From contig PEAB01000003.1 of assembly GCA_002753395.1 (NCBI GenBank), positions 20,022 through 84,021 of the forward strand: a DNA stretch of 64,000 nucleotides, read 5' to 3'. Positions 22,437 to 64,000 of the stretch are shown in pieces; the first letter of the stretch is position 1, and each line of letters opens with the position of its first letter. This stretch comes from Nitrospirae bacterium MYbinv3. GTDB lineage: Bacteria > Nitrospirota > Thermodesulfovibrionia > Thermodesulfovibrionales > Magnetobacteriaceae. The notes under the pieces are model-generated. The model was given only the letters and a program-made list of their open reading frames with translations, was not told the origin of the DNA and did no database searches. Position numbers and translations under genes: made by a program.

Positions 22437-23237
22437 TTAACTGCTGGGAGAGCACTCTCTCCTTGCGTTTATATCATCTAAATTGAGGATGTCAAGGTAT
22501 TCCCATTCTCTGTAAGCGACTACATAGAGGCCCTTTCTGCTCGCGAATTTTATTATATTATCCTTAAAGACGACGCTGGCTAGCATAGGGATTATTCTTT
22601 TACCTGTGCACTCGTCAAAGAACGTTGCCAGTGTCTCTGCCTTAGCCAGTACATCCTTTACGTCACGAGCATCGGGGTGGAACTTTGCTTCTATCATAAA
22701 GACCGTGTCCTCACAGATAAGCAGTAGGTCTACCTCACAGTTCTGGCCTCCCTTTCTTTTTATGGCCCTTTGACGAATATCATAAGGTTCGGATTTAAAA
22801 TATTTTCTAATCAAGGGAATCGTACCAGGTTGGATTATATCTTCAACGAGAATACCAAATTGTTTTGCTATATCTCCCCTTTGCTTATTGCGCTCCTTCT
22901 CAGAAATTCTATCACGCTCCGCCTGTTCCTCTTTATATAGCCGATCACGCTCCGCCTGTTCCTCTTTATATAGCCGATCACGCTCCGCCTGTTCCTCTTT
23001 ATATAGCCGATCGCGTTCCTCTTGTTCCTCTTTATATAGCCGATCGCGCTCCTCTTGTTTCTCTTTATATAGCCGATCGCGCTCCTCTTGTTTCTCTTTA
23101 TATAGCCGATCGCGCTCCTCTTGTTCCTCCTTATAATTTCGATCACGTTCTGATATCTCGATCTTCAGGTCTCTGTGAAGCTCGATCAGCTCAGCCATGA
23201 GAACCTCTAACCTATCAACCCTTGCCTCTAATAACAT
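22437..23237 (-). CDS. Coiled-coil protein with tandem 11-aa repeats and C-terminal PD-(D/E)XK-like domain
   Basis: (E/A)ERDRLYKE(E/K)Q repeats; C-terminal NCEVDLLLICEDTVFMIEAKFHPDA resembles a D...ExK nuclease-fold core. Confidence 0.7.
   Translation of the reverse strand: MLLEARVDRLEVLMAELIELHRDLKIEISERDRNYKEEQEERDRLYKEKQEERDRLYKEKQEERDRLYKEEQEERDRLYKEEQAERDRLYKEEQAERDRLYKEEQAERDRISEKERNKQRGDIAKQFGILVEDIIQPGTIPLIRKYFKSEPYDIRQRAIKRKGGQNCEVDLLLICEDTVFMIEAKFHPDARDVKDVLAKAETLATFFDECTGKRIIPMLASVVFKDNIIKFASRKGLYVVAYREWEYLDILNLDDINARRECSPSS
22905..23150. repeat. 33 bp tandem repeat inside a coding region
   Basis: Unit TATAGCCGATCRCGYTCCKCYTGTTYCTCTTTA repeated about 7 times. Confidence 0.9.
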
Positions 23238-43019: not shown

Positions 43020-45641
43020 GTGGCAGAGCGGATACAAGACTACATCACAGGCAAATCTCTTCACGTTCGACCAGAAGAGATTGTGCGACAGCAATTTGAG
43101 CATATTCTAGTTGATGAACTGGGCTATCCAAAGTCCCACATGACTATTGAATTCCAGATACAAAGAGGTGCTCAAAAGAAGGCTGAGAGCGCTGATATTG
43201 CAGTTTTTAGGAGCGCAATACAAGACCAGACAAACCTTCTGATGGTAATAGAGATCGAGCCACCTGGACATGTGTTCGATCAACAGGTGTTTTCTTATGC
43301 CACAGCCACTACAGCGGAATTTGTCGTTTGGTTTGATGGTCTGGATCGACAAAAAAGCCGAGGCGTTCAATATCGTTGGCGCGACCTACAGAATGACCCT
43401 ACCAAGTTTGTGGAAATACCTACAATACCAAGATTTGGAGAGACACTTGAGGAAATTGGGAAATATAAGAAATACCAACTAAAACCAGCGAAAGGATTAA
43501 AGAGCTTATTCCAGAAGATGCACAATCGTCTCTACGGCGAAGGCCCTATTAAGAGGGAAGACCTCATAGCTCAGGAGGTCATTAAGATACTTTTTTGTAA
43601 GCTATACGATGAACTTCATACACCTAACGAGACGTGTGAATTTCGGGTTACGGTATCTGAACTGAAATCCCAGCAAGGATTAAGTAAGGCTGCCAATAGA
43701 ATTCGGAACTTATTTAGAGCCATAAAGAACGACCCGGGCTATTGTCAATTGTTCACTAATGATGAGGTACAATACGATGACTATTGGATTTGCTATATCG
43801 TTTCTCAACTTCAGAGTATGGCCTTAACCCATGAAGAGACTGACACGGATGCACTAGGAGACGCTTACGAAGCATTTATTGGTCCTCAATTGAAAGGAGA
43901 AAGTGGTCAGTTTTTTACCCCTCGTGCTGTTGTGCATCTAGCCGTTGAGATGTTAAATCCGAGCTTTGTTAAGAGAGAGCGAATTATTGATCCAGCATGT
44001 GGCTCTGGTGGTTTCCTAATTTATGCATTGCGACATATAAGGAAAGAAGCTCACTTGCGACACTCTGATCGTGGAGAGACGTGGATTGCTGCACGCATAA
44101 AAGAATATGCAGCGAACTTTATATCGGGGATAGATATCGAGGACCTGCTCTTCAAGGTTGCTAAGTCGTATATGGCATTGGCGGGAAATGGCAGGACGGG
44201 GATATTCAAAGAAAACTCACTGGAGCAACACATATATTGGAAACCAGAAGCAAGGGAAAGGGTGCCATTGACAGGTTTTGATGTTCTCATTACTAATCCA
44301 CCTTTTGGGACTAAAATTAAGGTAGAATCTCAAGATATATTGAATCAATATGATCTTGCTCACACTCTTGTTGATGATAAGCGAGGAGTCAATACCCTTA
44401 CCGGTGGACAAGACCCATCAATACTCTTCTTAGAAAGATGTTATCAACTATTACGGGACCCAACAGATGAGAAAAACGGCGGACGTATGGCTATAGTGTT
44501 ACCGCGCCAGATTCTGAGTGGGCATGACAATACTATGGTTCAAATACGAAAGTGGCTCCTAAATAGGGTGAAGATTCTCGCTATTGTGGATATGCCTGCG
44601 GAGACATTCCAGCCCTACACAGGTACGATCACCAGTGTTTTGTTTGCAGAAAAAGCACGTGTCCCTTTTGAAGACTATGAAATATTCATGGCAGCCGCCC
44701 AAAATGTCGGTCATGACAGACGAGGTAATCCCCTGATTGCACGCCATCCTGATGGTTCCATGGTCTATGACGCAGATAATAATGAGGTCGTACTTAATGA
44801 TATACCTTTAATATTAGATGCATACGAAAAATGGAAAAGAGGCGAAGCCTTCAAGACTAAAAATCCAAGTATTTTTTCAATATCATTTTCAGGTATAATA
44901 GCTCAAAATGAGTGTCGGATTGATGCTTCATATCATGATGATAACAAGAATGAAGTGGTGAAACAAATATGGGGATTAGCCGGGGCCGACAACGGGACAC
45001 TTGAAGTCAAGACAATTAATGAACTTATACGAGAACCAAATGACGTCTTCTACCCGAATAGACACAAGCGCAATTACACATCGAAAGATAATGGTGCTGT
45101 ACCTTTCCTCTCAAGTAGTGATATATTACAGACTCGCGTTGTTGAAGTGAAGTGGCAGCCGTTAGCCTATAAACCAATCCCAAGGTGTATTGTTCGAAAA
45201 GACTGGATACTTATTACTAGATCTGGTACTACAGGCTTAGTAGTTTATGTTGGCGATTACTTAGCAGGTTTTCCTGTTAGTGAAGGAGTTGCAGTATCAG
45301 AGCATGTGATACGTCTTATTCCTGATCCTACCAAAATAGATCCCGCCTATTTATACTCCTTTCTGGCGAATGAGAAATTTGGCAAAATATTATTAACTAA
45401 GGGTATATATGCCTCAGTTGTAGAGCACATTACACCAGAGCACGTTCGTGACATTCCTGTGCCAGTACCACCACTTCATATACAGAAAATAATTGGCGAC
45501 AACATAAGGAAAGCAGAAAAAGCCCGTTGCTGTGCTTATAAAACACTGATTAGGGCAGAGACATCCCTTGTGCAAGCCATAGAAAACAAAACGTTCCAAA
45601 TTGAGATATACATCAACCATGCTAACCAAGAAGACAAATGA
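43020..45641 (+). CDS. Fused HsdR_N-like / HsdM N6-adenine methylase / HsdS single-TRD protein
   Basis: N-terminal IRQQFEHILVDELGYPKSHMTIEFQIQRG...ADIAVFR; methylase motifs IDPACGSGGFL and LITNPPFGTK; C-terminal TRD with PPLHIQKIIGDNIRKAEKA. GTG start. Confidence 0.9.
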   Translation: MAERIQDYITGKSLHVRPEEIVRQQFEHILVDELGYPKSHMTIEFQIQRGAQKKAESADIAVFRSAIQDQTNLLMVIEIEPPGHVFDQQVFSYATATTAEFVVWFDGLDRQKSRGVQYRWRDLQNDPTKFVEIPTIPRFGETLEEIGKYKKYQLKPAKGLKSLFQKMHNRLYGEGPIKREDLIAQEVIKILFCKLYDELHTPNETCEFRVTVSELKSQQGLSKAANRIRNLFRAIKNDPGYCQLFTNDEVQYDDYWICYIVSQLQSMALTHEETDTDALGDAYEAFIGPQLKGESGQFFTPRAVVHLAVEMLNPSFVKRERIIDPACGSGGFLIYALRHIRKEAHLRHSDRGETWIAARIKEYAANFISGIDIEDLLFKVAKSYMALAGNGRTGIFKENSLEQHIYWKPEARERVPLTGFDVLITNPPFGTKIKVESQDILNQYDLAHTLVDDKRGVNTLTGGQDPSILFLERCYQLLRDPTDEKNGGRMAIVLPRQILSGHDNTMVQIRKWLLNRVKILAIVDMPAETFQPYTGTITSVLFAEKARVPFEDYEIFMAAAQNVGHDRRGNPLIARHPDGSMVYDADNNEVVLNDIPLILDAYEKWKRGEAFKTKNPSIFSISFSGIIAQNECRIDASYHDDNKNEVVKQIWGLAGADNGTLEVKTINELIREPNDVFYPNRHKRNYTSKDNGAVPFLSSSDILQTRVVEVKWQPLAYKPIPRCIVRKDWILITRSGTTGLVVYVGDYLAGFPVSEGVAVSEHVIRLIPDPTKIDPAYLYSFLANEKFGKILLTKGIYASVVEHITPEHVRDIPVPVPPLHIQKIIGDNIRKAEKARCCAYKTLIRAETSLVQAIENKTFQIEIYINHANQEDK

Positions 45642-58944: not shown

Positions 58945-60741
58945 TTATAGTCGTTTAGCAAATAGCTGAGATAGTTCTTTGCTTGTTATAAAAGGCGACT
59001 GACCTCGTTCAATTCCTTTACCACGAATGCATAGCAAATCACCTTTTCCTAACAGGGCTTCAGCGCCTCCTTCATTTATTATTATCTGTGAGTATAACGG
59101 TTTTGTAACCCTGAGGCATATCTTAAGTGGGAGGTTTGCCCTTATTAACCCGGTGACAATCTCCTTGACGGGATGTTGTGTGGTCAATACGAGGTGGATA
59201 CCAGCGGCTCGACCTTTTTGTGCCAGTTTTATTATCAGGTTTTCAAATAATTTTTTCTTGTCCTTAGTCAATGTCAGTATAATATCGCCAAATTCATCTA
59301 TGATGATTATATGGAACGGGATATCCTCTTTTCCAGCCTTAAAACGAGCGCTTAGACAATCAAGCCCCTCTAAAGCAAATTGTTTAAAGCGTGACTCCAT
59401 ATCCTCAACTGTCTTTTCAAGGCATACAATAGTTGAACTGCCATAGTCATCTTCATTTTCTGCTTGATATTGACACTTCGCTGCTTCAAACTCTTTTGCT
59501 GCAAATGTGACCTTTTTGGGGTCAATGATCATGAGCTTCAGGCTGTGTGGTTTGTTTTTGGCGATTAACGATGCAACCATCGACTTGAGAAACTCGCTTT
59601 TTCCGCTGCCGGATGTTCCAGCCACAATGGCATGACACATGTTTGGGTCGGCAAAGTCGGCAATAATGACCTTGTTATCAATCCCGATGCCTACAGGGAA
59701 GGAGACGGGACTTTTATCTACCAGATATTCAGGTGTATTTACGATATCTCTCCAGGGAACTGTATCGGGTCTTTCCTTTGGTATATCTATAGTTACAAAG
59801 CCCCCTGACTCGCTGATCAGAGGTGCGTGACTCAGAGCGAGACGCACTTTTAGGTCCTTTGCAAGCCCTGCCAGTTTTGCAATCTTTAAACCGCTGGCGG
59901 GTATCAACTTATAACGAACCAACTGTGGTGCTTCCACTTTACCAATGACCTCAACGGATAACTTAAATTGCTCGTAAAACCTCTTAATGTCATCGGAGAG
60001 GTCTATGGTCTCGCTGGCCAATTCACAAAGGACGGGGGCGACGATTTCGGTGAATATGCTGTCAAGTTCATCGGCGTTAAAGGAGACTTTATCAAGTTTG
60101 GGCAGATAGTATTCGATTGTTCCGTGAAACTTTATAGCAGGGTTAGTCATGGTCAGGAGCCTTGCATACACGGCAATCTGGAGCATATCGTGTTTCATGT
60201 TGTCGCCCCTTGAGAGTTTATAGTCTACGATCTCGAGTTGGTTTTGAGGGTGGGTTCTTACGGCGTCTATTTTTCCTGAGACAAAGATAGAATTAGCGCC
60301 AAAAGGAAAGTGCACATCTTTTACATAGGCCTCTTTTGCCAAAAACACATCCTGCCATGATTTAAAGCCTTCAGTTCTATTTCGCAGGTCTACAAGATGG
60401 TCACAAAACGACATCAGGCACTGGCTGAGGTGATATGCTGATTCTACTTGTCCTTCTCCAAGGATTTCATTTAGTATTTTCACCGCAAATCGTTCATACA
60501 TCTCACCCCATAGTCTGTTGCCATCGTTTAGCTCAACGGTGGCCTTCTTGTTTTTCGCTTCAATAAGGCAGTCCACAAAGTCCGCTACTATCTTGTGAAA
60601 GGCTGTTCCCTTTACAGGAAAAGGGCCACCCCCCTTGGTGCAGTCAGTAGAGGGCTTGTTGCCCTTCAACCATTCATTGCGCCACTTGACATCGAGGCAT
60701 GCACATTTTAACTCACTGACACTTATAGTCTTTACTGCCAT
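58945..60741 (-). CDS. PD-(D/E)XK (RecB/Cas4-like) nuclease fused to FtsK/SpoIIIE-type motor
   Basis: RecB-like GTAFHKIVADF, GKIDAVRTHPQNQLEIVDYKLS, QIAVYARLL; FtsK-like VAGTSGSGKSEFLKSMV, IIIIDEFGDIIL, KGRAAGIHLVLTTQHP, GGAEALLGKGDLLCI. Confidence 0.88.
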   Translation of the reverse strand: MAVKTISVSELKCACLDVKWRNEWLKGNKPSTDCTKGGGPFPVKGTAFHKIVADFVDCLIEAKNKKATVELNDGNRLWGEMYERFAVKILNEILGEGQVESAYHLSQCLMSFCDHLVDLRNRTEGFKSWQDVFLAKEAYVKDVHFPFGANSIFVSGKIDAVRTHPQNQLEIVDYKLSRGDNMKHDMLQIAVYARLLTMTNPAIKFHGTIEYYLPKLDKVSFNADELDSIFTEIVAPVLCELASETIDLSDDIKRFYEQFKLSVEVIGKVEAPQLVRYKLIPASGLKIAKLAGLAKDLKVRLALSHAPLISESGGFVTIDIPKERPDTVPWRDIVNTPEYLVDKSPVSFPVGIGIDNKVIIADFADPNMCHAIVAGTSGSGKSEFLKSMVASLIAKNKPHSLKLMIIDPKKVTFAAKEFEAAKCQYQAENEDDYGSSTIVCLEKTVEDMESRFKQFALEGLDCLSARFKAGKEDIPFHIIIIDEFGDIILTLTKDKKKLFENLIIKLAQKGRAAGIHLVLTTQHPVKEIVTGLIRANLPLKICLRVTKPLYSQIIINEGGAEALLGKGDLLCIRGKGIERGQSPFITSKELSQLFAKRL

Positions 60742-62785
60742 TGGAGCACCGTTATTGTTGGCCCCCTAGTAATCCTTATTTGTGTGATCTGTCTACAGGA
60801 AGACAGACACACCTCATTGGTAATTGGTCCGACAACGTCCGTTAGCTCTAGCATCGACAGTTGATTAACAAGGTCATCTATGCTCTGCATTTTTTTGATG
60901 CTCATAATTTCAATAATCGCCTTGATCAAATTGACACTTGGCGGTAATAGAGGCGGCGGTGGAGCAATCTCAATAAAGGGCGGCGGTTTCATTATTTCTT
61001 CCCAGAAGAAACCAAGTTTTGCAAAGATAAACTTTAGAACTACATCAGGTTCAAATGGTGGAACATCCCCTGCACAAGAGTCATTGTAGAGGGTGTGAGC
61101 TGCATACAGTTTCGCGATTTTTTCGATATCTTCTAATTCGATTATATGTAGAAATCTTTCTTTAGCTGCATTAATAGCTACGCCTATCTGCCTCCAGCCT
61201 GGAATTGGTATTCTAGGTAAATCTGGCGTTATTCGAAACATCACAATCTTTGTATTATTATTATGACCAAAAAGACGGTTTGCTTCATTCGCGATTCCAT
61301 TCCATGTGGAATGATGCTTACCTGCTTCAAAACCGAAATAAAACCGTCTCTTTTCTAAAACCTGTCTCTCTTTTAAAACCCAATGTAAGGTCAACCACGG
61401 CCTCTGACCTTTATATTCACTGATTGTGAGACCTGTAAGACCGCTTGCGGCTTCTTTAACTAACCAGTAAAAAGTCTCTGGCAAGAATACAATGGGTTTT
61501 TGCTTTTCTTTTTCAACATAGTTATCATACAGCTTTTCTATACATGGTTCGGGTAATGGTGGCAAGCCTTCTATCTCTATCCAACGATTACTACATTCAA
61601 TCAATATCTTTCTTACGCATATTTCACTCTCGTCTTTAAACAAGCTTTTTAAAAAATTACCATTGTCACCAAAGACAGCCTTTCTATCTTCACAGTTTGC
61701 TTCTTTTAATCTTTTATCGATAAGCTCTCCTGCTTGTTCTCTTCCCATCCCTTGCAGAAGTATAGGTGGATTGCTCAATCGCTGAAGATTAGCATCATCC
61801 ATTTTATCTTTGATCCTATTTTCCCAGGTTGGCTTTATTGCTGTAACTACTGTCATATGATTATAGAAGTAATCCACCAACTGTTGTATTAAAGTACCTA
61901 GCGATCTCACAAGGTTTTCGTCTTTAGCGTATATTTCAGTCTGGTCTATGCAAAAAACAAATGGTCTAAAAAACCTTGCAATTTCACAAAAGTCTTTAAT
62001 TCTCGATTTACATAGTTCGTTAATGTCTACGTCTTCTATATTATTGTCAGATATTTTTATATCGATCTTATCAGCCTCATCCTTGTCAAACATCCCACCT
62101 ATAAGCCAGTCTATGCAGTTCTTTCTCACATTATAATTTCCTGTATAATAAGTATAAGTGAAAAGCACCCTCAGCCAATTAAAGGCAGAATCACTTAAAA
62201 CGATACTATGTTCTTCTATTTGCCCACAGAAAATTTCTTCCAATGTCGTAATATTTTCCTTAACCCATGCAAGCAGTACTTTTGATTTTTCATTTTTTTC
62301 ATATGGAATACTCTTTAGTTCATTAAAAGAAATTGGTATGTCTTCTTTTTTTATTAATTTATCCTTTACCCCATAAGATATCAATTTCTCTAAAATACCA
62401 AGGGTAAAGGCCTCAAGTTGTTGATAGTTATTTTCATTATCATGCTTACCATCAATTTTATCTGGTAAACGCAGTTCTTGTACAATCCTAAGCAATAGGG
62501 ATTGCCAAAACATCCTTGCACTTTCAAAAGGGGTTATATAAATCAGGGTTGCCTTCTGGTTTAATTTTTTAAACAACCGGCCAATTAAATGAGACTTCCC
62601 AAAGCCAGGGGCGGGGGATACGACTAACTGCGCATGAGTAAGCCTTTTTTTGTCTGGTTCAGACTCACCATCTAATTCATTAAACTTCTTAATAAGTTCA
62701 ATTAATGCGTGATCATTAAGCCCGGAGATACTCTGTTCAATGCTGCGAGGTTGATTAACTATATTTTTCCAAATGGATTAGGCAT
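60732..62785 (-). CDS. Large P-loop ATPase of unknown family; ORF extends upstream of the track start, with an apparent frameshift near its start
   Basis: In-frame upstream extension encodes NIVNQPRSIEQSISGLNDHALIELIKKFNELDGESEPDKKRLTHAQLVVSPAPGFGKSHLIGRLFKKLNQK (Walker A-like PAPGFGKSH); ARFFRPFVFCIDQTEIY is Walker B-like. ATG at 62785 is one frame off. Confidence 0.7.
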
Positions 62786-62813
62786 TATTATCTTGTCCTC
62801 TCTATGTCTTAAC

Positions 62814-63336
62814 TTAGCCTTTGTACTTTACTTGAAGTCGTAGTGTGCCTTTAAGATTAATTGCAGCGGCACGGGCTTCTTCAGAAGAATCAGACCAAAC
62901 ACCTTCATTTAATACCGCATTACCCAACCGGCTCTCTTCTAATAGTATCTTTTCAAGTTGCTCCCTGGTGGTAGAAAGCTCCTTTATCAATTTATATAAC
63001 TCCACGTATTCGAAATTACTCTCATCCCTGAGTTTTTTGTATGCCGTTAGCACCTGCTCTTTGGTCAGCACCTGTTTGTTTGTTACTGGCTCTGGCTGCT
63101 TAATCGAGGAGACATGCAGATAAAGAGTACTCCTACCGTGTTTTAACTCTAAGAGCTTACCATCTTCTACCAGCCGCTTAATAGCCGCTTGTGCATCATT
63201 GCGGATTTTTCCTGCCGGCAGAGCCTTCATTTTTTCAATCATAGTTTTGCTAAACAACAACTTGGGTTTAGCTGAGGTCTCTCTATCAATTATCTTATAA
63301 GCACGTTCCAGGATATTGCTAAATTCCTTTAAAACA
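62814..63336 (-). CDS. Small putative winged-helix protein, N-terminus abutting an IS end
   Basis: Track ORF 62814-63260; open frame continues upstream (VLKEFSNILERAYKIIDRETSAKPKLLFSKTMIEKMKALPAGKIRNDAQAAIKRLVEDGKLLEL) to the IS-like terminus near 63337. Confidence 0.55.
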
Positions 63337-64000
63337 GAGCCTCTTGCAAAACTCCTAAACGAAAGAAGTTTTAGCTCTCCTTATGATAAAATAAGTTTCC
63401 CAAACTTAAATCGATAAGGAGAGCATCATGTTAAGAGAGAGTATATCATGGTTATTAGGAAAAATTCAACGTGTATTGTTTCCAGAGTTAGAGGAAATAT
63501 GTACCGACCCCATAACCGAAAGACAAAGGCATTTGATTACAATCCTGGAGATAGTTCAAATAGAAAAGTATATGTGGTGGGTAGACAGTCAATGTATAGG
63601 GCGTAAGCTCAAGGAGAGGTATGCAATAGGCAGGGCTTTTGTAAGCAAATCTGTCTATAATTATCCTACGACAAGTCTATTGATAGAATCTCTAAAAACA
63701 ATGCCAAACCTTAGAAAGATATGTGGATTTGATAGAATACAAGATATACCGTCAGAATCAACATTCTCACGGGCTTTTGCCGAATATGCGACATATGGTA
63801 TAGGAGATAAAGTACATGAAGCGTTAGTTAAGGATCATTTAAGTGAAGAACTGATTGGACATGTATCAACGGATTCTACAGCAATAGAGGGCAACGAGAA
63901 GCCACAAAAAAAGGAAAGAGAAACGATAGAGAAGAAAGAGCCGAAAAAACTTGGTAGACCTAAAAAAGGTGAAGAGAGAGAAAAGAAAGCAGAAGAGACG
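63337..64000 (+). mobile_element. Insertion sequence, left part, truncated by window end
   Basis: Candidate left end GAGCCTCTTGCAAAACTCC at about 63337 followed by a transposase ORF; right end not in window. Confidence 0.65.
63428..64000 (+). CDS. DDE-type transposase (IS4/IS5/IS1182-like), partial
   Basis: Translated from ATG at 63428: MLRESISWLLGKIQRVLFPELEEICTDPITERQRHLITILEIVQIEKYMWW...IPSESTFSRAFAEYA...HVSTDSTAIEG...KKLGRPKKGEER; open to the window end. Confidence 0.8.
   Translation, partial: MLRESISWLLGKIQRVLFPELEEICTDPITERQRHLITILEIVQIEKYMWWVDSQCIGRKLKERYAIGRAFVSKSVYNYPTTSLLIESLKTMPNLRKICGFDRIQDIPSESTFSRAFAEYATYGIGDKVHEALVKDHLSEELIGHVSTDSTAIEGNEKPQKKERETIEKKEPKKLGRPKKGEEREKKAEET

What the first reader, a model, noticed from the sequence alone, without database searches (positions are those of the whole stretch)
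58945..63336. Candidate undescribed three-gene cassette: winged-helix protein, P-loop ATPase, PD-(D/E)XK-FtsK fusion
Three minus-strand genes are packed together: the ATPase and nuclease-motor genes overlap by about 10 bp, and the small gene lies about 30 bp upstream of the ATPase ATG. The last gene fuses a RecB/Cas4-like nuclease to a complete FtsK-type pumping motor, and the ATPase has a P-loop near its N-terminus. A DNA translocase plus nuclease plus partner ATPase plus small wHTH protein next to an IS resembles the layout of DNA-targeting defence or mobile-element systems. I do not recognise it as a named system (BREX, DISARM, Dnd/Ssp, Wadjet, Zorya). The defence role is inference; a plasmid or ICE maintenance function is equally open.
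Basis: partly seen in the sequence, partly recalled or inferred. Interest (0 to 1): 0.82.

Follow-up and report, generated by a model that had tools for sequence, protein, structure and literature searches.

The report
Damaged DNA-motor-nuclease defence cassette
The three genes are a damaged copy of a conserved bacterial gene set, predicted but not yet tested as a defence against invading DNA, in which a DNA-binding protein and an ATPase partner a protein that both pulls DNA in and cuts it; intact copies exist in the same genome and in other phyla.

Summary
The three genes are real and belong together. The same order (200-300 aa triple winged-helix protein, ~670 aa AAA+ ATPase, ~600 aa RecB/Cas4-like nuclease fused to FtsK-alpha and FtsK motor) recurs in a second copy in the same genome, in relatives, in Desulfobacterota and on a cyanobacterial plasmid; in one relative the ATPase and nuclease-motor are a single polypeptide. 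The window copy is broken: an insertion sequence cuts the small gene at 63336/63337, and the ATPase frame is disrupted just after its start codon, before the P-loop. It is not an undescribed kind: its anatomy matches the 'Orc/CDC6-coupled HerA/FtsK capture systems' predicted computationally in 2024 (PMC10853773), untested as far as I found. Likely mechanism: the winged-helix and AAA+ proteins find or load on invading DNA, the FtsK ring pumps it, the nuclease degrades it; the defence role is inferred. Possibly new is partner exchange: the same pair is followed by a caspase-like protease in 9 loci and sits beside a patatin-like phospholipase in 2. All 25 motor-linked ATPases, and none of the 9 caspase-linked ones, carry the C-terminal winged-helix region.

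The parts
58945..60741 (-). nuclease-FtsK gene, 598 aa, intact frame: RecB/Cas4-like PD-(D/E)XK nuclease, FtsK-alpha, FtsK motor
   Evidence: Pfam domains; motifs H49, D159, DxK175, Q188xxxY192, Walker A K381, Walker B DE482-483
60100..60615 (-). PD-(D/E)XK nuclease domain (aa 43-214)
   Evidence: PF12705 E 4.4e-8; RecB signature (D/E)xK...QxxxY kept in 24 of 24 homologues
59779..60006 (-). FtsK-alpha domain (aa 246-321)
   Evidence: PF17854 E 1.8e-7
59170..59724 (-). FtsK/SpoIIIE motor domain (aa 340-524)
   Evidence: PF01580 E 5.3e-28; profile matches solved FtsK translocases E 1.6e-82
60732..62777 (-). AAA+ ATPase gene, open frame only; intended ATG at 62785 lies in another frame, so the gene is disrupted at its 5' end
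   Evidence: frames; homologue alignment; fold model of the L001 homologue
62814..63335 (-). small multi-wHTH gene, 5' part (first winged helix) cut off by the IS
   Evidence: IS boundary; profile match only from position 68; fold model of the intact L007 homologue: three wHTH
63337..64000 (+). one end of an insertion sequence with DUF772 transposase (63428 onward, running off the contig)
   Evidence: PF05598 E 4e-7; about 40 further fragments in the genome start at the same IS position

Best explanation
The window holds a damaged member of the Orc/CDC6-coupled HerA/FtsK capture systems. In intact copies a triple winged-helix protein and an AAA+ ATPase (Cdc6/Orc-like fold, non-catalytic REase-like insert, C-terminal wHTH) recognise or load on invading DNA and recruit a RecB/Cas4-type nuclease fused to an FtsK motor. 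The FtsK ring pumps the duplex and the tethered nuclease degrades it. Shown here: gene order, domains, conserved catalytic motifs, co-occurrence, one natural ATPase-nuclease-motor fusion. Inferred: complex formation, pumping, cutting, target choice and the defence role. No self-protecting modification gene is a conserved neighbour, so how self is spared is unknown.
For: Three-gene order conserved across phyla; upstream 190-410 aa gene at 55 of 70 ATPase loci and nuclease-motor at 25; single-chain fusion in L156; RecB motifs in 24 of 24 homologues; AAA+ / alpha-beta / wHTH model with Cdc6/Orc1 2qby among the fold hits; triple wHTH; match to the published architecture; third gene replaced by caspase or patatin in relatives, effectors usual in conflict systems; patchy distribution, 3 of 295 genomes of the own phylum; some loci beside NsnB, PD-T4-4_A, ZorD/DpdE-like or type II RM genes (hand-picked).
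Against: No experiment. Immediate neighbours of most motor-linked cassettes are housekeeping genes. The REase-like nature of the ATPase insert rests on predicted topology only. The Orc/Cdc6 assignment is a weak fold match among many AAA+ hits. The window copy itself is damaged.
Confidence: 0.7

Rival explanations
1. A genome-maintenance machine, analogous to archaeal HerA-NurA: the motor-nuclease processes chromosomal ends or segregation intermediates, and the AAA+/wHTH proteins load it.
For: FtsK-alpha plus motor are nearest to chromosomal FtsK; many copies lie among housekeeping genes, and some closely related genomes keep it at the same place (L151, L152, L154).
Against: Patchy presence, multiple paralogues per genome and per contig, decay by IS and frame loss without evident cost, and exchange of the motor-nuclease for caspase or patatin.
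Confidence: 0.17
2. A plasmid or ICE maintenance/transfer module.
For: One copy on a conjugative plasmid of Pseudanabaena; an ATPase fragment on a Methylosinus plasmid; an IS beside the window copy.
Against: Few plasmid matches and no phage matches; no relaxase or integrase seen beside the copies inspected; the IS is a late insertion inside the small gene and is present at about 40 places in the genome.
Confidence: 0.07
3. A phosphorothioate-dependent restriction module of the SspFGH or DndFGH kind.
For: Best PADLOC match is SspH, C-terminal part only, E 1e-43; similar three-gene logic with a Walker A protein and an FtsK-like protein.
Against: SspF/SspG/DndF/DndG models do not match the partner proteins; SspH and DndH models are 1561-1766 aa and lack the RecB-type nuclease-FtsK layout seen here; no DndC family match in the genome.
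Confidence: 0.04

Closest known systems
Orc/CDC6-coupled HerA/FtsK capture systems (Rakesh, Aravind, Krishnan 2024, PMC10853773)
   Same: AAA+ ATPase with an insert and C-terminal wHTH, active nuclease, FtsK-alpha plus FtsK motor, fast-evolving multi-wHTH protein.
   Different: The nuclease here is RecB/Cas4-like and fused to the motor; the main text names neither RecB nor Cas4, nor caspase or patatin partners. The window copy is damaged.
SspFGH (PMC8092258)
   Same: Three genes, one with Walker A, one with a C-terminal FtsK-like domain.
   Different: No SspF/SspG match, much shorter FtsK protein with a RecB-type nuclease, no DndC family match in the genome.
DndFGH
   Same: HerA/FtsK motor plus P-loop and wHTH partners.
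   Different: Only marginal DndH matches, E 0.015 or worse; partners do not match.
BREX-Related Capture (BRC) systems (PMC12839542)
   Same: HerA/FtsK with an Orc/Cdc6-type ATPase and a wHTH protein.
   Different: PglZ, DUF6079, DUF4007 and STAND NTPase are the conserved BRC parts; none is found in the cassette.
MADS (mad8)
   Same: Motor domain similarity, E 5e-22.
   Different: Only the motor domain matches; no other mads component in the cassette.

Membership tests
Orc/CDC6-coupled HerA/FtsK capture system | HerA/FtsK motor, one set with FtsK-alpha | tested here: met
   PF01580 and PF17854; FtsK translocase structures E 1.6e-82
Orc/CDC6-coupled HerA/FtsK capture system | Active nuclease (REase) domain | tested here: met
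   PDDEXK_1; catalytic RecB motifs intact in the window and in 24 of 24 homologues. Whether it is one of the two REase families meant in the paper could not be checked
Orc/CDC6-coupled HerA/FtsK capture system | Orc/CDC6-family AAA+ ATPase in the same operon | tested here: inconclusive
   AAA+ core by model and weak AAA_16/AAA_22 matches in homologues; Cdc6/Orc1 2qby is a fold hit (TM by target 0.48) but HslU and Cdc48 have better E-values
Orc/CDC6-coupled HerA/FtsK capture system | Inactive REase between AAA+ core and C-terminal wHTH | tested here: inconclusive
   alpha-beta-beta-beta-alpha-beta order at 440-568 and wHTH at 614-671 of L001, no ExK, but no sequence or family match
[quoted passage not shown]
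   three tandem wHTH in the L007 model; 15-47% identity between homologues; window copy keeps only the last two
Orc/CDC6-coupled HerA/FtsK capture system | Anti-invader activity | not testable with these tools
   needs phage, plasmid and conjugation assays
SspFGH | SspF and SspG homologues beside SspH | tested here: not met
   no match of the partner proteins in PADLOC; SspH matches only over the FtsK-alpha/motor part
SspFGH | sspBCD phosphorothioation genes in the genome | tested here: inconclusive
   DndC family TIGR03183 has no match in the genome; SspB/C/D models were not run separately
BRC system | PglZ, DUF6079, DUF4007 and STAND NTPase with the motor | tested here: not met
   not found by Pfam/PADLOC/NCBIfam in the cassette proteins; the cassette is three genes only
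DndFGH | DndF, DndG and full-length DndH | tested here: not met
   only DndH motor similarity at E 0.015 or worse

The most novel reading that the evidence does not exclude
The triple-wHTH protein plus AAA+ ATPase is a general invader-sensing chassis that accepts exchangeable effectors: a DNA-pumping nuclease (restriction) in most lineages, and a caspase-like protease or a patatin-like phospholipase (host-killing) in others. The ATPase's C-terminal wHTH region would be the docking or DNA-handling part specific to the motor-nuclease version (25 of 25 with motor, 0 of 9 with caspase).
Probability: 0.5. Interest if true: 0.7.

Novelty: new member of a known kind. Interest (0 to 1): 0.47.

Why it matters
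The class was predicted from genomics in 2024 and, as far as I found, has not been tested. This work points to compact intact three-gene members (about 5 kb, no modification genes attached) that are easy to clone, a natural single-chain fusion that predicts a physical ATPase-nuclease-motor complex, and a partner-exchange pattern that would link restriction by a DNA pump with cell-suicide effectors through one sensor pair. If true, it makes the 'capture' idea, intercepting DNA by pumping it into a nuclease, directly testable.

Tried and rejected
SspFGH/DndFGH membership (no partner matches, no DndC). MADS and BREX/BRC (only motor similarity or partners missing). Plasmid/ICE or phage origin. A conserved modification partner: neighbours vary. 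Horizontal transfer of the window copy from Desulfobacterota: the FtsK tree places it with them (92/92), the ATPase tree with its own phylum on a long branch (86/93); undecided. Defence-island enrichment: the loci with defence neighbours were hand-picked, whereas immediate neighbours of 22 motor loci are mostly housekeeping, so no enrichment is claimed. Sequence evidence for a REase fold in the ATPase insert: none. No RNA family in 40000-64000.

Full report
Observation. Three minus-strand genes lie at 58945-63336. The third gene encodes 598 aa with PDDEXK_1 (aa 43-214), FtsK_alpha (246-321) and FtsK_SpoIIIE (340-524); by sequence its nearest solved relatives are FtsK translocases. It overlaps the ATPase gene by 10 bp. 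The ATPase ATG (62785, preceded by GAGAGGA) runs into TAG after eight codons; the frame that carries the P-loop GFGKSH has no ATG/GTG/TTG before it, while full-length homologues read straight through. The small gene is cut by an insertion sequence: about 40 further copies or fragments of this IS end in the genome begin at window 63336/63337, and the remaining small-gene frame starts with VLKEF, a motif that lies after the first winged helix in homologues. The ATPase remnant also sits on a long branch (1.3 changes per column against 0.15-0.4 in its nearest relatives). The window copy is therefore probably non-functional; an assembly error behind the frame disruption cannot be excluded.

Conservation. 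The same genome carries a second, intact copy (G000:C126, L007). The same order occurs in two genomes of the genus (L019, L020), one of the family (L021), in Desulfobacterota (L001, L002 and many more) and on a conjugative plasmid of the cyanobacterium Pseudanabaena (L023). With an 18-sequence ATPase alignment, 3 of 295 genomes of the own phylum and 51 of 390 genomes of the class of G306 have a match at the thresholds used (some of the 51 are distant matches). Of 70 ATPase loci inspected, 55 have a 190-410 aa gene just upstream and 25 have the nuclease-motor downstream or fused. In L156 the ATPase and FtsK are one 1242-aa protein, with RecB-type motifs visible between them in its sequence (GRIFHESF, GIADLV, VEFK, QVCLY). 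The motor of L063 matches HerA/TrwB profiles better than FtsK, so the motor itself has been exchanged in places.

Domains. The nuclease keeps the RecB-family signature: H49, D159, (D/E)xK175 and QxxxY; the last two were found in all 24 homologues checked. A CxxC...C cluster as in Cas4/AddB iron-sulphur nucleases is present in nine of those loci and absent from the window's clade. The ATPase model (L001, pLDDT 84.9) has an AAA+ core, an alpha/beta domain with REase-like element order, and a C-terminal wHTH. Foldseek returns AAA+ proteins; archaeal Cdc6/Orc1 2qby has the highest target TM among the hits listed (0.48) but not the best E-value. The insert has no catalytic ExK and no sequence match, so calling it an inactive REase is a topology-based inference. 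The small protein model (L007, pLDDT 84.5) shows three tandem winged helices; the closest folds are SelB winged-helix domains, a Pol III subunit, ScpB and MukE.

What is known. PMC10853773 (section 22; section 26) describes neighbourhoods with an Orc/CDC6 ATPase, an inactive REase between AAA+ core and C-terminal wHTH, an active REase, a HerA/FtsK, in one set with FtsK-alpha, and in a subset a fast-evolving 2-4 wHTH protein. [quoted passage not shown] The cassette meets the features I could test, two of them only inconclusively. It is not SspFGH, DndFGH, BRC or MADS. I found no experimental study of the class in the papers searched. I therefore file it as a new member of a known, still only predicted, kind.

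What may be new. In nine loci the same wHTH-ATPase pair is followed within 3-248 bp by a caspase-like gene (Peptidase_C14 with a PG_binding_1 domain in the two examined), and in two loci a patatin-like gene sits directly upstream of the pair. One contig (L124) holds three ATPases of the family: one with the motor-nuclease, one with the caspase, one with neither adjacent. All 25 motor-linked ATPases extend through the C-terminal wHTH region (profile end 650 or beyond); none of the nine caspase-linked ones do (606-614). On the ATPase tree motor-linked members occur in all main branches, caspase-linked ones mostly in one derived branch, and the patatin pair is sister to HerA-nuclease members. This suggests an ancestral motor-nuclease partner with later replacement. 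The counts come from related Desulfobacterota and are not independent events. Caspase and patatin are not mentioned in the main text of PMC10853773; its supplement could not be read.

Mechanism. Best-supported model: the winged-helix protein and AAA+ ATPase locate or load on target DNA; the FtsK ring pumps duplex DNA; the tethered nuclease digests it. Shown: domains, motifs, gene linkage, fusion. Inferred: complex, translocation, cleavage, target, defence role. Weak points: neighbours of the motor-linked cassettes are mostly housekeeping genes, and a genome-maintenance role is the main rival. Defence-like neighbours exist at some loci (NsnB at L136, PD-T4-4_A at L124, ZorD/DpdE-like helicase at L023, type II RM genes at L127), but those were picked by eye. 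In the window itself a type I-like RM polypeptide lies 13 kb away (43020-45641); the rest of the neighbourhood looks like housekeeping genes.

Noticed in passing
window 43020-45641: One 873-aa protein joins HSDR_N_2, N6_Mtase and Methylase_S domains: a type I/IIG-like restriction-modification polypeptide.
   Followed up: partly
window 63337-64000: The IS (DUF772 transposase) is multi-copy: about 40 further fragments, mostly at contig ends, so it probably breaks the assembly of this genome.
   Followed up: partly
window 22437-23237: Protein with many repeats of ERDRLYKEEQ/EERDRLYKEKQ, a tandem-repeat coiled coil.
   Followed up: no
L056, L124, L126, L127, L128, L130, L131, L135, L145: Caspase-like proteases directly downstream of wHTH-ATPase pairs of this family, instead of the motor-nuclease.
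   Followed up: partly
L066:10845-12527; L067:1-1241: Patatin-like phospholipase directly upstream of the wHTH-ATPase pair in two genomes.
   Followed up: partly
L057:996-3878: ATPase of this family continued by a C-terminal HATPase_c (GHKL) domain, 960 aa.
   Followed up: no
L021:10936-16408: Motor-linked cassette followed by a Tubulin_2 protein and an Eco57I-like methyltransferase.
   Followed up: no
L007:5492-12515: The intact second copy in the window's genome is followed by a vWA-domain coiled-coil protein and a dynamin-like GTPase.
   Followed up: no
L022:12001-12672: Fragment of a related ATPase on the Methylosinus plasmid pOB3b1, beside IS6 transposases and rtcR/rtcB.
   Followed up: no
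L060:8096-10754: Second cassette of genome G008: the nuclease-motor gene is missing and the ATPase match contains an in-frame stop, another decaying copy in the same family.
   Followed up: no
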